NCBI GenBank assembly: GCA_021604725.1
Contig: BQJN01000009.1
Location: 1-60,758, forward strand
DNA from: Lysobacteraceae bacterium
GTDB lineage: Bacteria; Pseudomonadota; Gammaproteobacteria; Xanthomonadales; BQJN01
DNA length: 60,758 nt
Direction of reading: 5' to 3'
Below the pieces are notes generated by a model that saw nothing but the letters and a program-made list of their open reading frames with translations, did not search any database and was not told where the DNA came from. Below are positions 12,885 through 56,148 of this stretch, piece after piece. How positions within the stretch are numbered: position 1 is the stretch's first letter; every line of letters begins with the position of its first letter. Both the position numbers and the translations under genes were made by a program.

Positions 12885-14036
12885 GTGAGACCACGAAACG
12901 CACTACTGTCGCTACTGGTTCTGGCCTTAATGGCCGGATCGCCGCTGGCTTCCGCTCAGCAACAGAAAAAGTATGCCTTGTTGATTGGCATCAACATATA
13001 CACCAGTACCAGCCTGATCAAAAAGGAGTTGAAGTTCGCCAAGGCCGATGCCTTGGGTCTGGAGGAGGTCCTGGAGTCTCGAGGCTGGGACACCGTCGCC
13101 GTGGTCGATGAGGCGGCTGATCGGCGTCGGATTATTCGCGAGCTTCATAAGCTGGCGTTGAAGGCTGGTCCATCGGACAAAGTGCTGATCTATTTTGCCG
13201 GGCACGGTGTTCGCGACCCGAGGGGTAAGGGCACAACCTACTGGGTGCCCACCGATGCAACGGTAGAGAATCTCGTTGCCGATGGAATTCGACTCAATCA
13301 CATTCTTGAGTATGTCAACGAAATCGGTGCGCAAGAGAAAATTGTCATACTCGACCATTGTTACAGTGGCGACTTCGATACGGCGATCAACGTCGTTAAT
13401 GATGACAGTCGTGATGGCATCGGCATTTCAAGCGTCACGGTCAACGAACGCGACCTGTTTCCGGAAGAAATCAAAAGGTTGGAAACCTACTCGGAACCAA
13501 GACTGGTGATCTTGGCGGCAGCACGTGGGCCCGCCTACGAGGACGACGACTGGGAACATGGAATGTTTACCAAAGCGATTTTGGACACTCTAGCCAACCC
13601 GCAATCCGACACATCGCCGGGCGACGGCAAGATCTCATTGGGTGAACTTTGGACGGCGCTAAATGTTGCCATTGAAGCGATGGCTGCTCAGAAAAACGTC
13701 GAACAAAAGGCGCTTTCCAATGCGTTGATCACGCAGATGAACTGGCAACTGTTCGATGCTGCGGTAGAAAACTTCGAAGAAGAAGCCCAGGAGCTGACCA
13801 CGCTATTGGCTCATTTGTTGATGGAGGCCCACCTGGAACCTGCCGTCGTTCAGGTCTATCGCGACGTGATTGCCAACATGGAGGCCGATGTGGCAGGTGG
13901 TGTCGAGCCCACTGAAACGACGCTGAAGTTGATCCAGGTTCTGCGTTCGGCACGAGATCTGGGCGTTAGCCAGGGGTCGGCTCAGGTGCTGAAACAAGAG
14001 GTGGTGCAACTGGGCCTGGTGGAGGGTGAAGTATGA
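12885..14036 (+). CDS. Exported caspase family protein
   Basis: A 383-residue protein with a Sec signal peptide (SLLVLALMAG, cleavage near ASA-QQ) and a peptidase C14 domain at residues 28-290. Its catalytic dyad is intact: H107 in YFAGHG and C159 in LDHCYSG. The C-terminal 100 residues are helical and unrecognised. Bacterial caspase homologues cleave after Arg, Lys or Asp depending on group; the specificity here cannot be read. The start is GTG 12885, 4 nt after the previous stop, and the 3' end overlaps the next gene by 4 nt (ATGA), so translation of the three genes is probably coupled. Export is unusual, because the best known bacterial caspases in defence act in the cytoplasm. Confidence 0.88.
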   Translation: MRPRNALLSLLVLALMAGSPLASAQQQKKYALLIGINIYTSTSLIKKELKFAKADALGLEEVLESRGWDTVAVVDEAADRRRIIRELHKLALKAGPSDKVLIYFAGHGVRDPRGKGTTYWVPTDATVENLVADGIRLNHILEYVNEIGAQEKIVILDHCYSGDFDTAINVVNDDSRDGIGISSVTVNERDLFPEEIKRLETYSEPRLVILAAARGPAYEDDDWEHGMFTKAILDTLANPQSDTSPGDGKISLGELWTALNVAIEAMAAQKNVEQKALSNALITQMNWQLFDAAVENFEEEAQELTTLLAHLLMEAHLEPAVVQVYRDVIANMEADVAGGVEPTETTLKLIQVLRSARDLGVSQGSAQVLKQEVVQLGLVEGEV

Positions 14037-16537
14037 ACGTCGTAGCTCGCCTCGCTGTGCTGATGATGGCTACCTGGTCATCGATCGGACTGGCCATGTA
14101 CCCCTCCGAGTCGGTCAGTCAACGCCAAGCGCTGATCATCAGCGATGAAGCCAATGGCCCGTCGGCAGACCTTGCCAATGTACTGGAGCAGCGCTACGGC
14201 TTTTCTGTGACCGCCTTGCTCGGTCGTGATGCCCGGCTGGCCAATATTGAGCGTGCCATGTTCTCGATGGCCGAGAAGGCCGGCGGCAACGATGAATTGC
14301 TGCTGCATATCTCGTTACCGATTCTACGCTCGCCGGAGCTGGCCTATTTGCCCGTGGGCTCTGCTGCTGAAGATACCTGGGACCATCTGCCATGGGCGAC
14401 GTTGCAGCGCTGGCTCACGCATATGGCGGGCGGACCGATGTTGATCACCTTCCCCGGCTGCAGCAGTCCCAAGGAGTCGGCCTACGGTGATGACGCCTTG
14501 CAGGAGCTGGCCTACCAGGTCGGCAAACAGCGCTATCCGGTCGAGGTTCTGATGCTATGTGACCTTGAATCGGTTCGTGTCCAACGGCGCGACCCTGAAG
14601 CTGGTTTTGTCGGTTGGCGCGGCGAGGAGGTGTCGGCGATGTTGGCTGAAATCCTGGACGATGCGCTCAATCGCCGATCGCTGGACTCACTCAACGCACA
14701 ATCTCTGGATGCGAGTCGAGTGGCATCGATCCTGGATCGGATTGGCGGCGATAGCCTGCAGATCAATCTTGTGACCATTCCTCTGCATCTGAGTGGCCAG
14801 TTTCGTTTCGTACCGGTAGAAAACAACAACGCCTACGAGAGTCGGTATGTTGATGCTGCCTCGGTCACGGTGTTGCAGGAAGTTCTGAAGGATTACGCAG
14901 GCGCGGCTGCTGACACGCCAACACTACAAGACGACTTCATTGCGTTTGCCGCTCAAATCGGACTATCGGCCAATGCCATGGCTGCTGGTGCCGGTCCGTT
15001 GGCGACGGCCGATTCCTTGGGATTGAGGCGCACTGCCATTCGCTCGCTGGTTGCTTTGGGCCAGGACAATCGCGCAGCCCGTGATGCCTTGGTCGACATC
15101 CTGGCCAATGCGGACGATGCTGCTGTGGTGCGTCGCGATGCGGTCAATGGCCTTGCCAGCCTGTTCTCTGACGGCGCCAGGGCCGTTGAAATCGATGCCT
15201 TGAAGGCTGCCGCAGAAGACAGTGACGCTTTTGTCCGTGATGCGGCGATTGTTGGTCTGGCAAAAAGCGGCCAGACGGATATTGCGGATTTCCTGGCCAA
15301 TGCGATGGCCGATGAGCAGGACGCCCGGGTGCGCCGCTCGATCCTGCTGATGCTGACCAACGCCAAACGTGCGCAAGATGCGCCATTGTTTGTGGCCGCT
15401 TTGGCGGACGATGATGCCGGCGTACGTTCGCAAGCGGTGGCTGCCCTGTCAGCACTGCCCGCTGATCAATCGATAAATCAGGCCTTGCTTGGCCGCCTTG
15501 CCCAGGAGCCGGACGCCACGGTGCGCACCAGCCTGGGTTATGCGCTGGGCCATACCGCACCAGAAGGGGCACAAGCGGCCAATATTCAGGCCCTGGTCAA
15601 CAGTCTCGGCAGTGACCCGTCGTCCTACCCGCGTGTGGCGATGGCCAAGTCACTGGGCGAGCTGGGGGGTGAGCAAGCGGTCACCGCATTGCGTGCTGCT
15701 TTGTCAGAGGACAACCCCGCCAACGTCCGCATTGCCAGCGCGCAAGCCCTGGGTGAATTGGCGGCCATAGAGGCCACACCGAATTTAATGGCGGCGACTG
15801 ATGATTCGGAACCGCGCCTGCGCATTGCTGCCATTGAGGCCTTGGCGGCGATCAACACCACCGATGCGGCCAATGCCATCTGGAATCGATTGAGCATCGA
15901 TGAAGACTTAAGGGTTCGAGAGGCCGCTCAACAAGCGTTGAAGACCTTGCCGGTGGATAGCGACCGCATTGCCGATCGCTTAAATAGTGATCAGGTGCAT
16001 GTGCGTCAGGCGGCTGCAGCGCAAGTGGCCAACTCCAGCGACCCGGCCGCTTCGCGCTGGTTGCTGGAGGGTCTGGAGGACAATGACAACACCGTGCAGC
16101 AACTATCCATCTCTGGTTTGACGCGATTGCCAGTCTCTGAGTACCGCGACACCATCCGCGATGTTTTCGACAACGGAACGCGCCAGGCCAAAGTCAATCT
16201 GGTCGATACCCTGGGCCGAATCAGTGGCGACGATGAAAGCTGGGCCACCGATTGGCTGATCCGGGCCGCGAGCAGCGACACCCCGGAAGTCAAAGCCGCT
16301 GCCGTGCGAGCGTTGGGGCAGCAAGGTGGCCGGGAGGGTTTGCAAGTGGCCTTGGAAGCAAGCCGTGACCGCTACGCCCTGGTCCGCGATGCCGCCGCCG
16401 AAGCGCTAGGCCACTACACCCAGCTCGCCGAGGCCACGACCCGCCTGCAGGAGCTGGCCAAACAAGACAAAGACGCCGACGTCCGCGAATCCGCCGTCAG
16501 GGCGCTGAGTAGACCGTCCCGGTTACGCATTCGCTAG
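14033..16537 (+). CDS. Exported degenerate caspase fused to HEAT repeats
   Basis: An 834-residue protein with a signal peptide (residues 1-21, ending GLA). The N-terminal 280 residues follow the layout of the caspase upstream, but where that has YFAGHG this has LLLHISLPI (89-97), so the catalytic His motif is lost. The nucleophile strand reads ITFPGCSSP with C143 still present. Residues about 330-834 are a long run of HEAT-like repeats (for example VRRDAVNGLASL, VRDAAIVGLAKS, VRESAVRALSR), about fourteen by eye. HEAT solenoids bind protein partners, so this is likely a pseudoprotease scaffold, sensor or regulator for the two caspases. It overlaps the upstream gene by 4 nt. Confidence 0.82.
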   Translation: MNVVARLAVLMMATWSSIGLAMYPSESVSQRQALIISDEANGPSADLANVLEQRYGFSVTALLGRDARLANIERAMFSMAEKAGGNDELLLHISLPILRSPELAYLPVGSAAEDTWDHLPWATLQRWLTHMAGGPMLITFPGCSSPKESAYGDDALQELAYQVGKQRYPVEVLMLCDLESVRVQRRDPEAGFVGWRGEEVSAMLAEILDDALNRRSLDSLNAQSLDASRVASILDRIGGDSLQINLVTIPLHLSGQFRFVPVENNNAYESRYVDAASVTVLQEVLKDYAGAAADTPTLQDDFIAFAAQIGLSANAMAAGAGPLATADSLGLRRTAIRSLVALGQDNRAARDALVDILANADDAAVVRRDAVNGLASLFSDGARAVEIDALKAAAEDSDAFVRDAAIVGLAKSGQTDIADFLANAMADEQDARVRRSILLMLTNAKRAQDAPLFVAALADDDAGVRSQAVAALSALPADQSINQALLGRLAQEPDATVRTSLGYALGHTAPEGAQAANIQALVNSLGSDPSSYPRVAMAKSLGELGGEQAVTALRAALSEDNPANVRIASAQALGELAAIEATPNLMAATDDSEPRLRIAAIEALAAINTTDAANAIWNRLSIDEDLRVREAAQQALKTLPVDSDRIADRLNSDQVHVRQAAAAQVANSSDPAASRWLLEGLEDNDNTVQQLSISGLTRLPVSEYRDTIRDVFDNGTRQAKVNLVDTLGRISGDDESWATDWLIRAASSDTPEVKAAAVRALGQQGGREGLQVALEASRDRYALVRDAAAEALGHYTQLAEATTRLQELAKQDKDADVRESAVRALSRPSRLRIR

Positions 16538-44035: not shown

Positions 44036-45337
44036 ATGAGCGAGCTGGGCCTGATCGCGGGCATTGGATTACTGGTCTTCCTGGCCTTGCGCGGCATGAA
44101 CCTGTTGATTGCCGCGCCCTTGTGCGCGCTGTTGGTGGCGTTGTTCGCCGGCATCAATGTCTTTCCAGACGACGGTGGCGAAAGTTTCGTCACCAGCTAC
44201 ATGTCGGGCTTTGCCGGCTTTGTCACCGACTGGTACCTGATGTTCTTGCTCGGCGCGCTGTTCGGCAAGGTTATGGAGGACTGTGGTGCGGCCGAGGCAG
44301 TGTCGAAGTGGGTCACAGATCGATTCGGGGCACAAAGGGCGCTGCTGGCAACGGTCGCTGCCTGCGCCATCCTGACCTACGGTGGGGTGAGCCTATTCGT
44401 CGTGGCATTTTCGGTCTTCCCGATGGCCCTGGCCTTGTTTAAACAAGCCAATTTGCCACGACGCTTTCTCCCTGCAACTATCGCTTTTGGGTCAGTCACG
44501 TTCACCATGACCTCGGCCGGTTCGCCGGAAATTCAAAACTGGATTCCGATTCAATACCTGGGCACCACGCCCTACGCCGGATGGCAAGTCAGCCTGGTGG
44601 TCGCGATATTCATGGCTTCGGTTGGTTATTGGTGGCTGAAACGAATGGTGGGTCGGGCGGTGGCCAATGGCGAGTGTTTTGAGAACAGAGCCAGCGACCC
44701 GGAAACGCATGACAAGGCGTTACCAAACCCCTTGGTCAGCATGTTGCCGCTGGCAGTTGTTCTGGTCTCTTCGCTGGTTCTGCACGATGCATTGGGCAAA
44801 TGGGCGCTGTTGGTGGCCTTGCTGTCCGGTATTGCCGCAGCCGTCATTCTCAATTGGCGCTACTTCCTGACCCCAGCCAAGGCAATCGAGGAAGGTACTC
44901 TGGGCTCATTGTTGGCGATCGGCAATACCGCGGCGGTGGTGGGTTTTGGCGCGGTGGCCAAGACCTCACCGGCGTTTGCTGTCGCTGTGGAGATGATGAC
45001 GGCGGTGCCGGGCAGCGCCTTGATTGGTGCTGCCATTGCCGTGACCACCATCGCCGCCTTGACCGGCTCGGCCTCCGGAGGGCAATCCATCGCCCTGCCG
45101 ATTTTGGCCCCGGTTTACCTGGATCAAGGCGTCGACCCAGAGCAACTGCACCGTGTGGTAGCGATCTCATCAGGGGCGCTCGATACCTTGCCACACAATG
45201 GCTATGTGGTGACTACCATCCGCGCGATTTGTGGCGAAACTCATCAGGCCGCCTATGGCCCAATGGCAGCGTTGACCCTGGTGGTGCCGCTGGTGGGCAT
45301 GGCATTGGCGATTTTGTTGTTTGTGACTGTGGGCTAG
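44036..45337 (+). CDS. GntP-family permease, probably for 3-hydroxybutyrate
   Basis: A 433-residue inner-membrane transporter with about twelve hydrophobic segments. It matches the GntP/anion:proton symporter group: GALFGKVMEDCGAAEAVSKWV, YGGVSLFVVAFSVFPMALALF, NTAAVVGFGAVAKTSPAF and GALDTLPHNGYVVTT. GntP relatives beside ketone-body genes often carry 3-hydroxybutyrate (family context, from memory). The start is ATG 44036 with only a weak ribosome site, possibly coupled to the receptor transcript across the hairpin. It sits between the outer-membrane receptor and the oligomer hydrolase, so import of monomers or short oligomers across the inner membrane is the inferred job. Confidence 0.85.
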   Translation: MSELGLIAGIGLLVFLALRGMNLLIAAPLCALLVALFAGINVFPDDGGESFVTSYMSGFAGFVTDWYLMFLLGALFGKVMEDCGAAEAVSKWVTDRFGAQRALLATVAACAILTYGGVSLFVVAFSVFPMALALFKQANLPRRFLPATIAFGSVTFTMTSAGSPEIQNWIPIQYLGTTPYAGWQVSLVVAIFMASVGYWWLKRMVGRAVANGECFENRASDPETHDKALPNPLVSMLPLAVVLVSSLVLHDALGKWALLVALLSGIAAAVILNWRYFLTPAKAIEEGTLGSLLAIGNTAAVVGFGAVAKTSPAFAVAVEMMTAVPGSALIGAAIAVTTIAALTGSASGGQSIALPILAPVYLDQGVDPEQLHRVVAISSGALDTLPHNGYVVTTIRAICGETHQAAYGPMAALTLVVPLVGMALAILLFVTVG

Positions 45338-49645: not shown

Positions 49646-51082
49646 TTACGAGGCTTCGAAGGATGCAATGAAAAGCTTGTCAGCCAATGCGGCAGCAAGA
49701 TGTCTTCGTTGTTGTTCCAGTTGCTCAATGACCGTTGAGTGGTCGGGTGAATCGATCAGGTTGAACGTTTCGTCCGGGTCGTTCGCCAAGTCATACAACT
49801 CGGCAAAATCGTGGTCGGTATACACGATGTATTTCCACCGCTCGCTTCGAACGCCATCATAGGCTGGAATTTCGGCCCTGTTTGGTGCGGGGTTGTAAGT
49901 GTGCTCTATATAGAAGGTTCGATCGGAATGCAGCAGGACAGGATTGAGCAGCGCCGGGGACAAAGAATTGCCATGACTCAGACAGTTTGGAGGCAATCCG
50001 GCAAGTTCAATGATCGTCGGTGCAATATCTAACAGGGTCGCAATATAGGATTCGTGGTGGCGTGAAAGTAGGTCAGCGTGATGAACAATCAGTGGCACTC
50101 GTAGGGAAACGTCGTGACCAAGCCATTTGCCCCCAAATCCGCGGTCGCCCATGAAAAAGCCATTGTCACTGGCAAGGATGATCCAGGTGTCCTGACCCCG
50201 GCCATTGGCTTGCAGTGCTGAGACAATGCGGCCGACGGCGTCATCAAGGCCGGTGATCATGGCAAAGTAGCGGCGGGACATCACGTCATAGACATCGTTG
50301 GCCCACCACAGACCGAATTGCTCGCGATTCAACGATTCCTGCAGAAACAAGGGAAAGCCATTGAACAGATCATCACCCCACGTCGCCGGTCTGGGGAAGA
50401 CGATAGGGTCATATAGCCCATCAAAACGTTTCGGTGGAACAAACTGTTCAGGTATTCGGGTGTCGGCATGCGGGGCCCAAAACCAGACGTTTAGTACCAG
50501 CGGCTGCGAGCGAGGCGTTTGCTCAATGAAAGAGACAGCGGCATCGGCCATACGGTCGGTGTAATGCGAGCCAATCAGGCTTTGATCAATAGGGGTGAAT
50601 GAGTCGAATTGCTGATCAATCCTCGGTTGATCGAAATTTGCACCATTCTTGCCGACGAACCCACTCCGGTACCCTGCATCTCTAAGGCGCTTCGCAAAGC
50701 TGTAGTTGAGCAAGTCGGAATCAACCAACGGCTGATCGAAGGTGTAACCATGCATGCGTTCGTACAAGCCGGTGAGCAGTGAGATGCGACTCGATGGACA
50801 AATGGGACTAGTGGCGAACGCCTGGTCGAATACCACGCCGTCGCCAGCAAGGAAGTCGATATTGGGTGTTTGCAAGTCGGGTGTGCGAAAACCCATCGCA
50901 TCGAAGCGCTGGTCATCGGTAAACAAGATGACGAAATTAGGTTGTGCTGCGACGATGAAAGGGACGAATACCGCCAGCATGTTAAAGCACACACATAGCG
51001 CTGAGCGTTTTGTCTTCGCTCGGCCGGTGAGCAATGGATTCGCAGATACAGTGCGGTTTGAAGCGTGTGCGGGCTTATTCAT
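49646..51082 (-). CDS. Sulfatase family protein
   Basis: A 478-residue exported type I sulfatase-like protein. Metal-binding residues appear in ILFTDDQRFDAMGF, and the formylglycine site reads SPICPSSRISLLTG. Its Cys aligns with the modified Cys of CxPSR, but Ser occupies the usual Pro/Ala position. Further motifs are WFWAPHADTRIP, ASDNGFFMGDRGFGGKW and ERWKYIVY. A signal peptide lies behind a long basic leader (RAKTKRSALCVCFNMLAVFVPFIVAA). The C-terminus FIASFEAS resembles the short FxxxFE tail also seen on the FG-GAP protein. ATG 51082 is chosen; GTG 51103 is possible. Formylglycine formation would need a maturase; the radical SAM gene nearby is better assigned to the peptide cluster. Confidence 0.87.
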   Translation of the reverse strand: MNKPAHASNRTVSANPLLTGRAKTKRSALCVCFNMLAVFVPFIVAAQPNFVILFTDDQRFDAMGFRTPDLQTPNIDFLAGDGVVFDQAFATSPICPSSRISLLTGLYERMHGYTFDQPLVDSDLLNYSFAKRLRDAGYRSGFVGKNGANFDQPRIDQQFDSFTPIDQSLIGSHYTDRMADAAVSFIEQTPRSQPLVLNVWFWAPHADTRIPEQFVPPKRFDGLYDPIVFPRPATWGDDLFNGFPLFLQESLNREQFGLWWANDVYDVMSRRYFAMITGLDDAVGRIVSALQANGRGQDTWIILASDNGFFMGDRGFGGKWLGHDVSLRVPLIVHHADLLSRHHESYIATLLDIAPTIIELAGLPPNCLSHGNSLSPALLNPVLLHSDRTFYIEHTYNPAPNRAEIPAYDGVRSERWKYIVYTDHDFAELYDLANDPDETFNLIDSPDHSTVIEQLEQQRRHLAAALADKLFIASFEAS

Positions 51083-51416
51083 TCTGCTTGGGATGTTACA
51101 CACACAGCATCGCTTGTCCTAATTCTTGGGGGCTGCACGTGGTTAAGTAGACATCACTCTGCCGGCCCCTATCGCGATCACCGCGACCCCGCCCGTATTG
51201 GCAGACTACCGTGCCGTATGTCGAGTCGTGCCTTGTTTCTGTGGGCCTCGGGCACTGTACAAGACCATCGAACAATGGTAGGTTTTGCAAACAATGCCAC
51301 AAAGTATACTTCTCTACAGCATTCTCGACTGGCATTGTGACTCGCCGAATTGTGCAGCCATCTTAGACGGTGGGGCGCAGTTCATTCCACTTCACTACTG
51401 AAGAAGGAGTTCAACC
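51083..51416. promoter_or_regulatory. Divergent region between sulfatase and RiPP cluster
   Basis: A 334-nt region with promoters for both sides. The best visible element for the peptide genes is a -10-like TATACT at 51305-51310, with only a weak -35 (TTGCAA at short spacing). An excellent ribosome site, AAGGAG, lies 8 nt before the first precursor gene. No regulator gene is adjacent. Confidence 0.4.
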
Positions 51417-51563
51417 ATGGCTAATGTATTGGCCCATGAGCACAAGGAGAGAATCCTTGAAATGATTGCTCAGGAAATCAAAGCCAATTTTGAGGACCAG
51501 GTCAAAACTGATGAAGACCTGAAGAAGATCTCGGCTGAAACGTTGCTCTATATACGCTTCTAA
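51417..51563 (+). CDS. RiPP precursor peptide 1
   Basis: A 48-residue peptide gene with a strong AAGGAG ribosome site. The leader is helical and charged (KERILEMIAQEIKA), then a linker, then KKISAETLLYIRF at the C-terminus. Its sister at 51617 shares KERIL-MI--E-KA and KKI--E-LLYIRF. A conserved leader with an identical, aromatic C-terminal end next to a radical SAM/SPASM enzyme is the hallmark of ribosomal peptides modified at the C-terminus. The core is probably the last six to ten residues, containing Y45, I46, R47 and F48. It is short enough to be overlooked by gene callers. Modification sites are inferred. Confidence 0.88.
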   Translation: MANVLAHEHKERILEMIAQEIKANFEDQVKTDEDLKKISAETLLYIRF

Positions 51564-51616
51564 CGAATCTCATTTTCTCAATACATTTTTAATCAAGTGA
51601 CCTAAAGGGAACGACT

Positions 51617-51760
51617 ATGAATACTGATACAAGCAGAAACAAAGAACGCATCTTGCAGATGATCTCCAAAGAGGTGAAAGCCACGATGGAACAAAATGCT
51701 CAGCCGCAAGGCGCGGTCAAGAAGATCAATAAGGAAGCGTTGCTTTATATCCGCTTCTAA
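51617..51760 (+). CDS. RiPP precursor peptide 2
   Basis: A 47-residue twin of the first precursor, 53 nt downstream, with AAAGGGA before the ATG. The leader reads KERILQMISKEVKA and the C-terminus KKINKEALLYIRF; the middle linker differs completely (QNAQPQGAV). Conservation at the two ends and divergence in the middle is what a recognition leader plus a modified core predicts. Both genes end in TAA directly after Phe. The 140 nt to the HExxH gene hold a weak GGGCA/TGCCC stem and a ribosome site. Confidence 0.88.
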   Translation: MNTDTSRNKERILQMISKEVKATMEQNAQPQGAVKKINKEALLYIRF

Positions 51761-51900
51761 GCACTGAAAATGCATTGTCCTGGGGGGCAGTCAGCGGGTA
51801 CTGGACAACAAGTTCACAGCTATCTCAAAGATTCGCAAACTTGCTTGAAGACTCGCCACCTGACCCTCGGGGCAAAGCATCGCTGCCCTAAAGAGAGAAA

Positions 51901-53010
51901 ATGATGCTTGCTCAGTCAAACCCCACTCTGGAACCGATTTACCAAATGTTCTCTGGCCCGGTCACAGGGTTCGACGAGGAGATCGCCAGGGTAATCGTTA
52001 ATTCGCATGTTGCAGATGCGCTGACGAAAACTGCCAATGAACTGGCCAGGCAACAGCTGTGGTTTGCGCCCCTAGTGGTGCAATGGCAGCAACAGGAACA
52101 TCCTCTTGCCGACCTCTGGCGACCTGCTTTTGCTTCCCTGGAAGAAAAAACACAGCGTGGCGTCATTGAGGACAATGATTTGATCGCTGCCGCACTGGCG
52201 ATGCATGAGTCAATCTCACCCAGAAGTTGGCAGTCCGCGGCAACTGGCGACAACCACTTTCGGCTTCATGGCCATAGTTTGCCGCCCTGCGCCCACATTC
52301 GTTGGGATTGCGATCAGGTTCCACCTCGCCTTTACTGTGACGGTAAACCCATCTCGAGCAACGATTGCAAAGGCGCAAACCACTCGCCGGTCTTCGAGTT
52401 CGAGATCTATCCAGATACCTCCACTTTGCATGCTGACTTCCCGGTGTCGTCGACCGGCTGGAATCAAAGTTCGGTGTGGTCCGAAGCGATTGATCTGCTA
52501 CATCGCACCAGTCCGGAATATGCACAGTGGGCTTGTCGACTGGTCAACACGATCGTGCCGCTGGACGCCCCCAGAGGCCACCAAATCAGCGCCAGCCATC
52601 GCCATCGTCGAGGTGAGGTCTTGATGTCGTGGGATCTGAGTCCCTCGCAGCTGGCTGAAAATCTGGTTCATGAGGCCAGCCATCAACATTTTTTCATGGC
52701 CACCATGTTGGGCGATTGTGACGACGGCACTGATCGTACGTTGTATTTCTCACCGGTGGTAAAAACCGAAAGACCATTGAGCAAGATTCTGTTGGCCTAT
52801 CACGCATTTGCCAATGTCATCTTGTTCTTTCGCCAGGCTCGTGACTTGTTGCCGGTTGCAGAACGCAATGAGGTGGATTTCAGCTCGAAAAAAATCATGG
52901 ATGAGCTGGAGCTGTTGGAACGCCCGCTGCGCGAATCGAGTTCGCTAACCATCCTGGGTCAACAATTGTGGTGCCCTCTGGCCGCCCAACTAAAGGAGAC
53001 GAATGCATGA
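51901..53010 (+). CDS. HExxH-motif peptide-modification protein
   Basis: A 369-residue cytoplasmic protein whose one clear motif is HEASH at residues 257-261, inside a helix (LAENLVHEASHQHFF). Proteins of this type are annotated beside radical SAM/SPASM cyclophane maturases; some act as 2-oxoglutarate-dependent beta-hydroxylases of peptide residues (family knowledge, from memory). The N-terminal 200 residues show no known domain. A metalloprotease that removes the leader is the alternative. The start is ATG 51901 or 51904 behind AGAGAG. The stop overlaps the radical SAM start by 4 nt (ATGA), so the two enzymes are made together. Confidence 0.8.
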   Translation: MMLAQSNPTLEPIYQMFSGPVTGFDEEIARVIVNSHVADALTKTANELARQQLWFAPLVVQWQQQEHPLADLWRPAFASLEEKTQRGVIEDNDLIAAALAMHESISPRSWQSAATGDNHFRLHGHSLPPCAHIRWDCDQVPPRLYCDGKPISSNDCKGANHSPVFEFEIYPDTSTLHADFPVSSTGWNQSSVWSEAIDLLHRTSPEYAQWACRLVNTIVPLDAPRGHQISASHRHRRGEVLMSWDLSPSQLAENLVHEASHQHFFMATMLGDCDDGTDRTLYFSPVVKTERPLSKILLAYHAFANVILFFRQARDLLPVAERNEVDFSSKKIMDELELLERPLRESSSLTILGQQLWCPLAAQLKETNA

Positions 53011-54131
53011 GTGTCAACGCCGTAGTCATCAAGATCGCCTCACGATGCAACCTAAATTGCAGCTATTGCTACATGTACAACCATGCAGATCAGAGTTACT
53101 TGCGCCAGCCCAAGATCATGAGCGAATCGGTATATACGGCGGCGATGGAAACGATGCTAAATCACAGCAAGCAGCAGGGTACGCATCACAAGTTTGCATT
53201 GATCATGCACGGCGGGGAGCCGACCTTGGTCGGCGTTCGCCGGTTTCGCTGGTTCGTCGAGACCGCTCGATCCATTTTAGGAGAGCGTTTGATGCTGGTC
53301 GCCATACAGACCAACGCACTGCTGTTGAATCCGAACTGGGCTCAACTCTTTCAGGAACTGGAGGTGACAGTCAGCGTCAGTCTGGATGGAACAGCCGAGC
53401 AGCACGACGCATTCAGAGTTGATCATCAGGGCAAAGGATCGCATCAGCGAACGGTTAATGGAATTGACGTTTTGCATGAACAGGGCGTACAAACGCGCAT
53501 TATTTGCGTGGCCAATCCAGCGGCTCGTGGCGATCTGACCTACCAGCATTTTCGACAGCTGGGCATCACCAAGATGGACTTTTTGTTCCCCGACATCACG
53601 CACGATACCAAGCAAGCCTGGTACGGCTCGTATGGTGAGACGCCGGTAGCTGATTTCATGATTCAGGCGTTCGATGCGTGGCTCGATGAAGACAACCGCG
53701 ACGTCAAAGTACGCATTTTCTACAACCTGTTGCGCAGCTTTATGGGCGACTCACCCGGTTCAGAAGCGTTTGGGAATCCGCTGCTGAACTATTTGATCGT
53801 CAATACCGATGGTGCCATCGAAGGCACCGATGCACTGCGAGTTTGCGATGAAGGGCTGGTCGATACCGGACTGAACGTTTTGAGCAACGAGTTCGATCAG
53901 TTGGCACAAGGCAATTCCTTGCTGTTCCAGGCATCCGAAGCCGGTCTTCCCTTGTGTGCCAAGTGTCAGGCGTGCTCAGAGGTAGCGATCTGTGGTGGCG
54001 GCCAGTTTCCACATCGTTACCGCAAAGGATCGGGCTTCGACAATCCCTCGGCGTGGTGCGATGACATCAAGAAGCTGTTCCACCACGTTCGGAACAGGAC
54101 GGGCCTGTTTGACGTCCGCAAATCAGCCTGA
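53007..54131 (+). CDS. Radical SAM/SPASM peptide maturase (cyclophane type)
   Basis: A 374-residue radical SAM enzyme. The cluster motif CNLNCSYC (C14, C18, C21) is followed by the family-typical YMYNHAD, and MHGGEPTL and VSVSLDGT match the SAM-binding core. C-terminal Cys residues (LCAKCQACSEVAICGGGQFPHRY, then SAWC) form a SPASM domain for auxiliary Fe-S clusters. The whole resembles the FxsB/GrrM/XyeB group, which joins an aromatic ring to a nearby side chain within a three-residue stretch. The likely target is the YIRF end of the precursors. ATG 53007 has AAAGGAG at ideal spacing. Radical chemistry and target site are inferred from the family. Confidence 0.9.
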   Translation: MSVNAVVIKIASRCNLNCSYCYMYNHADQSYLRQPKIMSESVYTAAMETMLNHSKQQGTHHKFALIMHGGEPTLVGVRRFRWFVETARSILGERLMLVAIQTNALLLNPNWAQLFQELEVTVSVSLDGTAEQHDAFRVDHQGKGSHQRTVNGIDVLHEQGVQTRIICVANPAARGDLTYQHFRQLGITKMDFLFPDITHDTKQAWYGSYGETPVADFMIQAFDAWLDEDNRDVKVRIFYNLLRSFMGDSPGSEAFGNPLLNYLIVNTDGAIEGTDALRVCDEGLVDTGLNVLSNEFDQLAQGNSLLFQASEAGLPLCAKCQACSEVAICGGGQFPHRYRKGSGFDNPSAWCDDIKKLFHHVRNRTGLFDVRKSA

Positions 54132-54163
54132 GTGAAAACAAGCAAAACAGAGGTCCAAGTTGG

Positions 54164-55150
54164 ATGCCAGCTCAGCTAAGTCTTGAACAGCGAAATTTGC
54201 CGAAGGATGCTGCTGAAAGAAGTCGACTGTTGCAGCGCTATTTTCAGCGCCAGGATGTCGATGCACGCAGAACCGACCAAGGTTGGGCGGTACAAACCGA
54301 TTGGACGGCTAATGCGGAGTATTACATTGATCCAGAGCTAAGCTCCGGTCTGGACATGTGGCCGACGCCATTGGCAACTAAATCAATCCCTCTCGCGGTA
54401 CAACAAGAAAAAGATTTTCTTCTGGGGCTAAACGACTGCTGGTCATTGTTGGGCTGGAGTTTGAAACTCGCTGAACGCCCTGATACACAACGCATCAACT
54501 TGATTCATTTGGATAGCCACACCGACCTTGGCAGCCCGCGCGTTGGTTTGACTGCCGACAGTCGATGGGTTGATCTTCTATCAGGCGATGCTTTTGATAT
54601 TGGCGACCCAATGTCGGTGGCCAATGCGATCAAGAGCGGCGCCATAGGTATAGGCAGCTTCATATGCCCGCTGATTGCGTCGGGAGTTGAGGTCGACCTC
54701 TACCATCTTTCTCCAAGGCAGCATTTTCGATACTCCCCGGACCGCTATAGCCTCGCTTTGGGCCTTGAACGAAACGATCCCATTTTTCCTTCCGCTATTC
54801 GCCCGTTCCTTGAAGTTGGGCGTGAGGAGTGTGCGTCAAATTATGTATTGACCGACAAGCTGGCGGAGATTTGTCAGGCTATCGACCGACGCTTTCCAAC
54901 TTTTTTGCATATCGATTTGGATTATTTCAACAATCGCTTCGATGGCCGGCCTGATTGGCGTGGAAAGCAATCGAGACATGATCCATCGGTCACTGAGGTC
55001 CTGGACAACATCGACAAAGTGTTCGCCGAACTCAAAGCGCGGGAAATACCGATCGCAGACCTTTGCGTTGGTGTGTCACCAGGCTTTTTCCCCGCCGAGT
55101 ACTGGCATCCAGCATTGCAGCAAATTCGCAAACAGGCGCAAGGTCTGTGA
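54164..55150 (+). CDS. UPF0489 arginase-like (peptide arginase) enzyme
   Basis: A 328-residue protein of the UPF0489 family, which has the arginase/ureohydrolase fold. Two manganese-binding motifs are visible: HLDSHTD at H115, D117, H119, D121 and HIDLDYF with D251 and D253. UPF0489 proteins in RiPP clusters, such as OspR of landornamide, convert peptide Arg to ornithine (established for that group, from memory). The C-terminal core of both precursors holds one Arg, in YIRF, giving a direct predicted substrate. Start ATG 54164 is 32 nt after the radical SAM stop; the stop overlaps the next gene by 4 nt (GTGA). No other arginine-metabolism gene is nearby. Confidence 0.85.
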   Translation: MPAQLSLEQRNLPKDAAERSRLLQRYFQRQDVDARRTDQGWAVQTDWTANAEYYIDPELSSGLDMWPTPLATKSIPLAVQQEKDFLLGLNDCWSLLGWSLKLAERPDTQRINLIHLDSHTDLGSPRVGLTADSRWVDLLSGDAFDIGDPMSVANAIKSGAIGIGSFICPLIASGVEVDLYHLSPRQHFRYSPDRYSLALGLERNDPIFPSAIRPFLEVGREECASNYVLTDKLAEICQAIDRRFPTFLHIDLDYFNNRFDGRPDWRGKQSRHDPSVTEVLDNIDKVFAELKAREIPIADLCVGVSPGFFPAEYWHPALQQIRKQAQGL

Positions 55151-56148
55151 TTGCTGCTCAGGCTCTGCAGCAACCCAATAGCGTAACCACTGACGCGTTG
55201 GCCACAGCGCGCAATCCGGTATTGATGTTTGCCAACGGCTATGGCGATCACTATTTGAACCTGCCCGCGATTCGGGCACTGGCCAGGTTCTATCAAGGGC
55301 GGCTGACATTGGTCGGAATCGATCCGGCGATCACGGATATTGCCCGTGGGCTCCCTTTGGCCAGGGTGGTTGCATTGCCAATGCAACATACGCCGACGGG
55401 GCGGCTATTCGATGTCCACAAGGCGCTTGAAGAGATCGGTCAGTGTGATGCCTTTCTGTCGTTGAATCCGTGGATGAATGAGCCGTTACTTCAGCTAATC
55501 ACCGGCCTCGGTCCCAAGGTGAGTGTCGGTTTTTTTGAGCCCTTCGATATTCGTCTGCAGCGAGACTACAGCAAACATTCCTGCGACCTGGCCTTTGATA
55601 TGGTGCACTTGCTTCGCCCGGATTGGTCGCCGGAACAGTTTGCGCAAGCTCCGACCTATGCAAGATCGGACGTCGAACTGGCTGAGCGAATTCACGCCGC
55701 CTTGCCATCAGAATGCAGGGTGCTATGTATTCATCCAGATACTTTGCCAGAGAAAATGTGGCCGGAGCATTGCTGGGTGGAACTGATCGATCAGCTAGTG
55801 GATCGTTATCCCGACTGCCGGGTAGTGATTGTGGGATTGCGAGGCATCGATGTGGAGCGTTGTCGACACCACGAGGCGGTGATTCCGGCGTATGGATTGC
55901 CGATTTCGGTCAGCGGCGTACTGCTGTCGAAAGCCGGTGTGTTCGTCGGGGTCGATTCGGTTTTCCTGCACATAGCAGATCTTTTCAGGGTGTTCGCCGT
56001 CGGCCTTTTTGGCGCTACCGACGCTAGCGAGTGGGGCGTTCGCTTTGGCCCTGGGCAGGCGGTTAACGCGGACTCAATGCAGGGTATTGAGGTTGGGCGA
56101 GTTTTCGATGCGGCCGTTTCTGCATTTGAGCGCAGAAGGACCGATTAA
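55147..56148 (+). CDS. Glycosyltransferase family 9-like protein
   Basis: A 333-residue cytoplasmic GT-B enzyme similar to ADP-heptose:LPS heptosyltransferases. It has an N-terminal VLMFANGYGDHYLNLPAIRAL (in place of RxGALGDvl), a central LCIHPDTLPEKMWPEHCWVELI nucleotide-sugar loop, and VGVDSVFLHIADLFRVFAVGLFGATDASEWG near the end. It starts at GTG 55147, overlapping the arginase stop by 4 nt, so it is the last cistron of the peptide operon. The obvious inference is glycosylation of the peptide, but UPF0489 and GT9 could also have been brought together for another reason. No LPS genes are nearby. Confidence 0.82.
   Translation: MIAAQALQQPNSVTTDALATARNPVLMFANGYGDHYLNLPAIRALARFYQGRLTLVGIDPAITDIARGLPLARVVALPMQHTPTGRLFDVHKALEEIGQCDAFLSLNPWMNEPLLQLITGLGPKVSVGFFEPFDIRLQRDYSKHSCDLAFDMVHLLRPDWSPEQFAQAPTYARSDVELAERIHAALPSECRVLCIHPDTLPEKMWPEHCWVELIDQLVDRYPDCRVVIVGLRGIDVERCRHHEAVIPAYGLPISVSGVLLSKAGVFVGVDSVFLHIADLFRVFAVGLFGATDASEWGVRFGPGQAVNADSMQGIEVGRVFDAAVSAFERRRTD

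What the first reader, a model, noticed from the sequence alone, without database searches (positions are those of the whole stretch)
51417..56148. Six-gene RiPP cluster combining twin LLYIRF precursors, HExxH protein, radical SAM/SPASM enzyme, peptide arginase and GT9
The sequence shows two short genes with the same leader and C-terminus, followed by four coupled enzyme genes (ATGA overlap between HExxH and radical SAM, GTGA overlap between UPF0489 and GT9). Each family is known from peptide modification, but I do not know this full combination as a described product. Prediction: a small C-terminal peptide with an aromatic crosslink, hydroxylation, one ornithine and possibly a sugar.
Basis: partly seen in the sequence, partly recalled or inferred. 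Interest (0 to 1): 0.93.

Follow-up and report, generated by a model that had tools for sequence, protein, structure and literature searches.

The report
Crosslinked peptide cluster with arginase-like enzyme
Six neighbouring genes look like a small factory that makes a ring-locked peptide from two short precursors ending in Tyr-Ile-Arg-Phe; its parts are known kinds put together in a way not seen elsewhere, and one of them, an arginase-like enzyme, turns out to accompany a family of known crosslinked peptides in other bacteria.

Summary
Two paralogous short genes (both ending LLYIRF) precede a HExxH protein, a radical SAM/SPASM protein, an arginase-fold protein (R) and a GT9 protein, with the stated overlaps. 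It is very probably a RiPP cluster. The radical SAM protein is a cyclophane-type (YhhB/FxsB-like) maturase, below both family cut-offs and outside the YhhB clade. R is the informative part: a scan of one large genome collection found 44 related loci. In 41 of 44, R follows a YhhB-type maturase; 40 of 44 encode a C-terminus Y-x-R-M... (YhhA). YhhB is reported to join Tyr or His to the beta-carbon of Arg two residues on. The window core Y-I-R-F fits, so I predict a Tyr-Arg cyclophane whose Arg is processed by R, probably to ornithine. R has the peptide-arginase (OspR) fold and keeps the DxHxD and DxD metal motifs, but has Asp where UPF0489 has a motif His. Hydroxylation (probably Phe) and glycosylation are less certain. 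No close relative of the precursors or of the six-gene arrangement was found in the collections searched. New variant of a known kind; no chemistry was tested.

The parts
51417..51563 (+). Precursor peptide A1, 48 aa, C-terminus LLYIRF
   Evidence: AGAAGGAG Shine-Dalgarno-like sequence before the ATG
51617..51760 (+). Precursor peptide A2, 47 aa, C-terminus LLYIRF
   Evidence: AAAGGGA before the ATG
51543..51563 (+). Putative core of A1: L-L-Y-I-R-F-stop (Tyr45-x-Arg47 crosslink site proposed)
   Evidence: Y-x-R reasoning
51740..51760 (+). Putative core of A2: L-L-Y-I-R-F-stop
   Evidence: two of six codons differ synonymously from A1
51761..51900 (+). Spacer between A2 and the enzyme genes, folds strongly as RNA (possible attenuator or processing element)
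   Evidence: -49.3 kcal/mol, shuffles -37.8 sd 3.8, z -2.99, 2 of 200 shuffles as good; one of four stretches folded (the others z -2.44, 0.83, 1.18); no terminator-like site called there
51901..53010 (+). alphaKG-HExxH-type peptide beta-hydroxylase (stand-alone; HEASH)
   Evidence: TIGR04267 7.7e-26, above cut-off; HExxH kept in alignment; phmmer match to 22nu/22ob, E 1.1e-4
53007..54131 (+). Radical SAM/SPASM cyclophane-type maturase (CNLNCSYC; C-terminal Cys cluster)
   Evidence: tree places it outside the YhhB clade, with two Rhizobium plasmid maturases
54164..55150 (+). R: peptide-arginase-fold protein (HLDSHTD; HIDLDYFNN)
   Evidence: family profile hits only 8BRP in the PDB, E 3.1e-8; AlphaFold2 pLDDT 95.6; Foldseek top 8BRP E 4.6e-9; invariant residues
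55147..56148 (+). GT9-family glycosyltransferase (GTG start overlapping the stop of R)
   Evidence: PF01075 33.4 bits, cut-off 22; homologues beside rSAM genes

Best explanation
A ribosomally made, post-translationally modified peptide of the three-residue-cyclophane kind. The KERILxMI..E.KA part of A1/A2 acts as leader, the C-terminal Y-I-R-F as core. The radical SAM/SPASM enzyme joins a ring carbon of Tyr45 (A1 numbering) to the beta-carbon of Arg47 (-2 Da). R hydrolyses the guanidine of that crosslinked Arg to give ornithine (-42 Da). The HExxH enzyme beta-hydroxylates Phe48 or Ile46 (+16 Da). The GT9 enzyme may attach a hexose or heptose to the new hydroxyl or to the Tyr phenol. Shown: gene content, families, paralogy of A1 and A2, predicted fold of R, and the tie between R, YhhB-type maturases and Y-x-R precursors elsewhere. 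Inferred: every chemical step, its site and its order. Own estimates: RiPP cluster 0.92, Tyr-x-Arg cyclophane 0.65, Arg to Orn by R 0.6, hydroxylation of Phe/Ile 0.5, glycosylation 0.4.
For: A1/A2 are paralogues far beyond chance and keep LLYIRF while the middle diverges. The maturase's two best models are both cyclophane-forming families. Homologues of R on 5 plasmids lie by YhhB genes. In a scan of genome contigs with R (44 loci), 41 of 44 have R after a YhhB-type gene; 38 of those 41 are one frame of 652-742 aa matching the rSAM-HExxH fusion of L014 along its length (L014 scanned). 40 of 44 encode a C-terminus Y[DS]RM[HY][HN][RK]H[NS]RS. R shares one open frame with rSAM-HExxH on one plasmid (1046 aa) and with GNAT in two loci. 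YhhB links C3(Tyr) and C2(His) to C-beta(Arg) (passages of PMC11002830). R is related to OspR by profile and fold. In biphenomycin A the C-terminal aromatic residue, which follows Arg-derived ornithine, carries a beta-hydroxyl, and BipH is an HExxH-type hydroxylase (passages of PMC12707348). Weak support: candidate precursors that I picked by eye in 7 comparison loci without R (L009-L012, L063, L064, L086) show no aromatic-x-Arg in the apparent core or repeat unit, though spacers of the L063 and L064 repeat proteins do hold such triplets.
Against: The maturase is below the YhhB and FxsB cut-offs, and its nearest relatives in the tree (41% identity) lie beside HDQTHSEG-repeat proteins, not Y-x-R precursors, so its site cannot be inferred by orthology. 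R lacks the His of the UPF0489 motif (Asp in 38 and Glu in 2 of 40). The precursors were not found again in other sampled genomes or in plasmids. No clear peptidase or exporter gene was recognised among nine neighbours scanned. The 40 Y-x-R precursors with R are one homologous family and some loci are near-duplicates, so the correlation is not 40 independent events. In one of the 40 (L052) the second triplet is H-H-K.
Confidence: 0.6

Rival explanations
1. RiPP cluster with the Tyr-Arg cyclophane, but R is not an arginase: with its motif His changed to Asp it does other hydrolysis on the crosslinked Arg, or only binds the modified peptide.
For: R and the six relatives scanned fall below the UPF0489 cut-off; R and the four of five relatives with a match fall below the NF052474 peptide-arginase cut-off, the fifth has no match; position 91 is Asp or Glu in 40 of 40 where a UPF0489 protein has His.
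Against: HxDxHxD (115-121) and HxDxD (249-253) are invariant in 40 of 40, the OspR chains are the first three of 626 fold matches, and the first core triplet of the partner peptides is Y-x-R in 40 of 40 (which searched for it).
Confidence: 0.22
2. RiPP cluster in which the radical SAM enzyme makes a different bond (for example at Ile46, Leu or Phe48), Arg being processed independently.
For: The maturase groups with Rhizobium enzymes that lie beside HDQTHSEG repeats; A1/A2 do not match the YhhA model.
Against: With the aromatic-x-X rule of the family, Y-I-R is the only triplet in LLYIRF that starts with an aromatic residue (Phe48 is last).
Confidence: 0.13
3. The radical SAM protein is an anaerobic sulfatase maturase for the sulfatase gene at 49646-51103, and the short genes are unrelated.
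For: TIGR03942 scores 188.4 bits; a sulfatase gene (PF00884) starts about 300 bases before A1, on the other strand.
Against: Cut-off 349 not reached; YhhB and FxsB models score over 300; overlap with the HExxH gene; R is tied to cyclophane maturases elsewhere.
Confidence: 0.03

Closest known systems
YhhA/YhhB cyclophane RiPP systems (NCBIfam NF041705/NF041707; triceptides)
   Same: Y-x-R in the core, SPASM maturase, HExxH hydroxylase, R as neighbour
   Different: Window maturase and precursors fail the YhhB/YhhA models; rSAM and HExxH are separate genes; one Y-x-R instead of three aromatic-x-Arg triplets; GT9 instead of GNAT and GT2
Biphenomycin clusters bip/bpm/pbs (PMC12707348, PMC12257519; passages only)
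   Same: Arginase, HExxH hydroxylase (bip/bpm) and a radical SAM crosslinker on a short core containing R-F
   Different: Biphenomycin uses an MNIO for ortho-tyrosine, a B12-dependent rSAM for a biaryl bond, a JmjC hydroxylase and a TldD protease; none of these was found here
Peptide arginase OspR (PDB 8BRP; landornamide) and FlmR/OhkR
   Same: Fold, DxHxD and DxD motifs
   Different: No EEH(N/H)E motif; Asp at the position of its His; different partner enzymes
Fused rSAM-HExxH protein ChlBH (named in PMC12636437)
   Same: Both belong to the HExxH hydroxylase family (TIGR04267 for the window)
   Different: Stand-alone gene here; I did not compare the two sequences (that 22nu/22ob is such a protein is presumed)
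rSAM + ABC transporter + GT9 clusters of one genome of the same order (L010, L086)
   Same: GT9 homologue at 29-30% identity near a cyclophane-type rSAM
   Different: Precursors with Gly-Gly leaders, C39 peptidase-ABC gene (Pfam in L010; by eye in L086), no R; L010 has a HExxH gene, L086 only a protein that resembles one by eye and lacks the motif

Membership tests
YhhA/YhhB system | Precursor matches YhhA model NF041705 | tested here: not met
   A1: 0 families; A2: one unrelated, E 0.12; a true YhhA scores 60.9 bits, cut-off 36
YhhA/YhhB system | Maturase above YhhB cut-off and inside the YhhB clade | tested here: not met
   314.5 against 445 bits; outside the 43-row clade, support 100/100
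YhhA/YhhB system | R protein beside the maturase | tested here: met
   (a regular neighbour found here, not a published criterion that I saw)
Triceptides (three-residue cyclophanes) | SPASM radical SAM resembling cyclophane-forming subfamilies beside a precursor with an aromatic-x-X core | tested here: met
   best two models, though below both cut-offs; Y-I-R
Triceptides (three-residue cyclophanes) | C-C bond between aromatic ring and beta-carbon of residue i+2 | not testable with these tools
   needs co-expression, MS/MS, NMR
alphaKG-HExxH hydroxylases (TIGR04267) | Model above curated cut-off and HExxH present | tested here: met
   91.2 against 40 bits; HEASH
alphaKG-HExxH hydroxylases (TIGR04267) | alphaKG/Fe-dependent hydroxylation | not testable with these tools
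   needs an assay
Peptide arginases (pfam12640) | Pfam cut-off | tested here: not met
   18.2 against 27 bits
Peptide arginases (pfam12640) | Arginase fold like OspR | tested here: met
   Foldseek rank 1, E 4.6e-9, TM 0.55/0.58; profile E 3.1e-8
Peptide arginases (pfam12640) | DxHxD and DxD metal motifs | tested here: met
   invariant in 40 of 40
Peptide arginases (pfam12640) | His of EEH(N/H)E motif | tested here: not met
   Asp91; aligned to His of one UPF0489 protein (hhalign probability 64%, E 6.6e-5)
GT9 glycosyltransferases | PF01075 above cut-off | tested here: met
   33.4 against 22 bits
Biphenomycin pathway | MNIO and B12-dependent rSAM | tested here: not met
   Pfam finds only Radical_SAM and Fer4_12 in the maturase; no MNIO family in the hits for the six genes or nine neighbours

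The most novel reading that the evidence does not exclude
R founds a separate class of ureohydrolase-fold enzyme that acts only on an Arg already locked in a cyclophane, with an Asp-altered metal site. It is a regular but unassigned part of YhhB systems in at least four phyla, so their true products carry cyclophane-ornithine (or another Arg derivative) rather than Arg. The near-invariant YhhA core across phyla, with no exporter named in four annotated plasmid stretches (gene tables incomplete), would then point to an internal, cofactor-like role; the window is an independent lineage that took up the same enzyme for a Y-I-R-F peptide.
Probability: 0.2. Interest if true: 0.78.

Novelty: new variant of a known kind. 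Interest (0 to 1): 0.52.

Why it matters
If R turns crosslinked Arg into ornithine, the reported Tyr/His-to-Arg cyclophanes of YhhB systems are intermediates, not end products. That can be tested by adding one gene to an existing co-expression. The window cluster offers a minimal version (a single Y-x-R in a four-residue core, separate enzymes), convenient for working out order and need of each step.

Tried and rejected
Searches for close relatives of the whole cluster. HExxH protein: 1 of 369 class genomes (its own); 6 of 398 order genomes, the 5 others at 22-36% identity; in these five loci (L008-L012) a rSAM gene is adjacent, but no R was found, and candidate precursors, where found, are unlike A1/A2. 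HExxH in plasmids: 1 of 72,556 records, a Rhodococcus plasmid with an adjacent rSAM gene and no R hit. rSAM in plasmids: 176 records, of which I fetched 7 regions; no real R match in any (best E 0.48, inside a rSAM frame). Own family: one genome held. R: 1 of 398 phylum genomes, its own. PF12640 itself: 1 of 150 phylum genomes, not its own, and 0 of 14 controls. Precursor model: 2 of 259 order genomes at E 0.01, its own and one partial match (positions 7-34 of 48, E 0.0096) inside an 880-aa open frame, taken as chance. Viral contigs with HExxH: none. Phages with R: none. The R scan of genome contigs used two short peptide patterns, so relatives without them are missed.

Anaerobic sulfatase maturase reading: rejected on scores. 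Promoter and terminator scans found no more than shuffles give (1 against mean 3.7; 6 against mean 5.3, sd 2.3), so no operon claim rests on them. phmmer of R alone found no arginase; only the family profile did. phmmer of a Mucilaginibacter R found nothing. R tree: the window row is a very long branch and its place is unsure; I draw nothing from it. GT9: 15 of 398 order genomes have a match at E 1e-6, but only 3 places besides its own are nearly full length, at E 1.4e-31 or better; 2 of these 3 are near rSAM genes in one genome (L010, L086), the third (L087) is not.

Rows left out. R alignment A2 has 40 rows: the window and 38 of the 44 loci, L024 twice. Left out by me: L030 (GNAT fusion), L035 (truncated), L049 (split), L039, L053 and L056 (close to other rows). 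The rSAM tree left out L022, L035, L053, short overlapping loci, and matches aligned over fewer than 300 residues (such as the cut rSAM frames of L059 and L060). The comparison precursors were picked by eye; for L008 I found none.
Full report
What is there. The window (contig 9 of a 4.68 Mb, 210-contig assembly) holds six genes in a row on the plus strand: A1, A2, HExxH, rSAM/SPASM, R and GT9. A1 and A2 are 49% identical and end in the same six residues; their alignment score is about 14 standard deviations above shuffles. The LLYIRF-stop pattern is found twice, never in 100 shuffles of the window.

Enzyme families. HExxH passes the curated cut-off of the alphaKG-HExxH beta-hydroxylases, and the rSAM protein is closest to the cyclophane-forming YhhB and FxsB families but below both cut-offs. 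GT9 passes PF01075 but not the heptosyltransferase models. R is only hinted at by UPF0489 (18.2 bits, cut-off 27) and the NF052474 peptide-arginase model (16.5 bits, cut-off 350).

R decides the reading. tblastn of R found five plasmid records (Rhizobium 4, Novosphingobium 1). Four have gene tables. L014 and L015 list yhhA, yhhB, a hypothetical protein (R), GNAT and a glycosyltransferase; in L018 the order is the same, R being part of the frame listed as GNAT; in L017 an insertion element lies between yhhB and a separate HExxH gene, followed by R, GNAT and GT2. In the unannotated L016 the same order was found by BLAST. Of these 44 loci, 41 have R after a YhhB-like gene: in 38 it is one frame of 652-742 aa matching the rSAM-HExxH fusion of L014 along its length, in two Firmicutes loci a stand-alone YhhB-like frame of 376-379 aa, and one (L035, the same record as L017) is broken by the insertion element. 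GNAT homologues lie in 39 of 41 and GT2 homologues in 28 of 41, within the DNA held; GT9 was found in none of the 44. A frame ending Y-x-R-M plus 6-9 residues was found in 40 of 44 (not in L022 and the three Mucilaginibacter loci); the last 12 residues are SYDRMHHRHNRS in 20, SYDRMHHRHSRS in 13 and variants in 7, one of them (L052) with H-H-K as second triplet. The loci come from Pseudomonadota, Cyanobacteriota, Bacteroidota and Bacillota. Some are near-duplicates (L022 like L014, L053 like L021, L035 the same record as L017), so these are not independent events.

What YhhB does. A review states that YhhB (WP_013448981.1) crosslinks C3 of Tyr and C2 of His to the beta-carbon of Arg (passages of PMC11002830). 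The original paper (10.1021/jacs.2c00521) is not held and was not read. The usual YhhA core thus carries three aromatic-x-Arg triplets (YDR, HHR, HNR), and the window core has one (YIR). Candidate precursors in seven comparison loci without R, picked by eye, show none in the apparent core or repeat unit; spacers between the repeats of L063 and L064 do hold such triplets. I conclude that R most likely acts on the Arg of an aromatic-x-Arg cyclophane.

Is R an arginase? A profile of 40 R proteins finds one sequence in the PDB copy at E 10 or better: 8BRP, peptide arginase OspR, E 3.1e-8. The AlphaFold2 model (pLDDT 95.6, pTM 0.92) matches the three 8BRP chains first (best E 4.6e-9, TM 0.55/0.58), then mostly arginases. 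HxDxHxD and HxDxD are invariant. The His of the EEH motif is not: a profile alignment with one UPF0489 protein of unknown function (probability 64%, E 6.6e-5) puts Asp91 opposite His, and the column is 38 Asp, 2 Glu. That this His is the sixth metal ligand follows from the motif description in PMC12703449 (abstract, introduction and passages seen) and from position; it is inference. Arginase activity is therefore likely but not secure.

Not a YhhB member. A1/A2 fail the YhhA model, the maturase fails the YhhB cut-off, and in a 61-row tree it stands outside the 43-row YhhB clade (100/100), joined with two Rhizobium plasmid maturases (L063, L064; 41% identity) with support 100/99; the tree tool warns that long branches meet there. 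Those two lie beside a stand-alone HExxH gene and a repeat protein with MHDQTHSEG-like units, without R. The window HExxH matches those of L008, L009 and L069 better than those of L063 and L064, and GT9 has nearly full-length homologues near rSAM genes at two places of one genome of the same order. The cluster looks like a mosaic of parts known from separate systems.

Published precedent for the combination. Biphenomycin clusters combine arginase, HExxH hydroxylase and a radical SAM enzyme on an F-R-F core (passages of PMC12707348 and PMC12257519). There the radical SAM enzyme is B12-dependent and an MNIO makes ortho-tyrosine. Six paper searches listed no paper that, by title, abstract start or the passages I saw, ties an arginase to YhhB systems; the library lacks most subscription papers.

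Mechanism and limits. Best reading: Tyr45-Arg47 cyclophane, Arg to ornithine, beta-hydroxylation of Phe48 (by analogy with the C-terminal aromatic residue of biphenomycin A) or Ile46, optional sugar. Among nine neighbouring genes scanned none is a clear peptidase or exporter; a beta-lactamase-family serine hydrolase (PF00144, 48388-49728) and a GntP-type permease (44036-45337) are there and cannot be excluded. The four annotated YhhA/YhhB plasmid stretches name no exporter either; two list Mov34/MPN/PAD-1 proteins, and such tables are incomplete. Of four non-coding stretches folded, the spacer between A2 and the enzyme genes has the strongest RNA fold (z -2.99) and the stretch before A1 is next (z -2.44); either could set expression. 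No chemistry was tested.

Noticed in passing
L063:5415-6863 and L064:4974-6884 (Rhizobium lusitanum and R. ruizarguesonis plasmids): Frames of 482 and 636 aa (annotated as 380 and 632 aa) with many MH(D/G)QTHS(E/S)GG-like repeats directly before a stand-alone cyclophane-type rSAM and a HExxH gene, with a NAL1-like protease-type gene behind (Pfam in L063): looks like a giant multi-core RiPP precursor.
   Followed up: partly
L019-L062 (YhhA C-termini): The YhhA core SYDRMHHRH[NS]RS is almost unchanged across four phyla (33 of 40 exactly this), unusual for an antibiotic-type peptide.
   Followed up: partly
L016:5832-8972; L018:7998-9470; L030:8001-9497: One open frame of 1046 aa holds rSAM, HExxH and R together in L016; L018 and L030 have R and GNAT in one frame.
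   Followed up: no
L058-L060: Mucilaginibacter R homologues stand between ~1010-aa lantibiotic-dehydratase-like genes (label recalled, not scanned), with 60-61-aa peptides ending ...LRM...LRI or ...VRI about 6 kb away and rSAM genes about 5.5-6 kb away on the other strand.
   Followed up: no
window 12885-16537: Two adjacent large genes whose starts resemble caspase-like proteins, inside a 14-kb run of large plus-strand genes (label recalled, not scanned).
   Followed up: no
window 49646-51103: Sulfatase gene (PF00884) with CPSSR where the usual modification motif is C-x-P-x-R (recalled).
   Followed up: no
L086:11485-12771: Protein that by eye resembles the L011 HExxH protein but lacks HExxH (no NCBIfam hit at 1e-10), beside a GT9 homologue, a cyclophane-type rSAM and a candidate precursor with a Gly-Gly leader and W-V-K.
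   Followed up: partly
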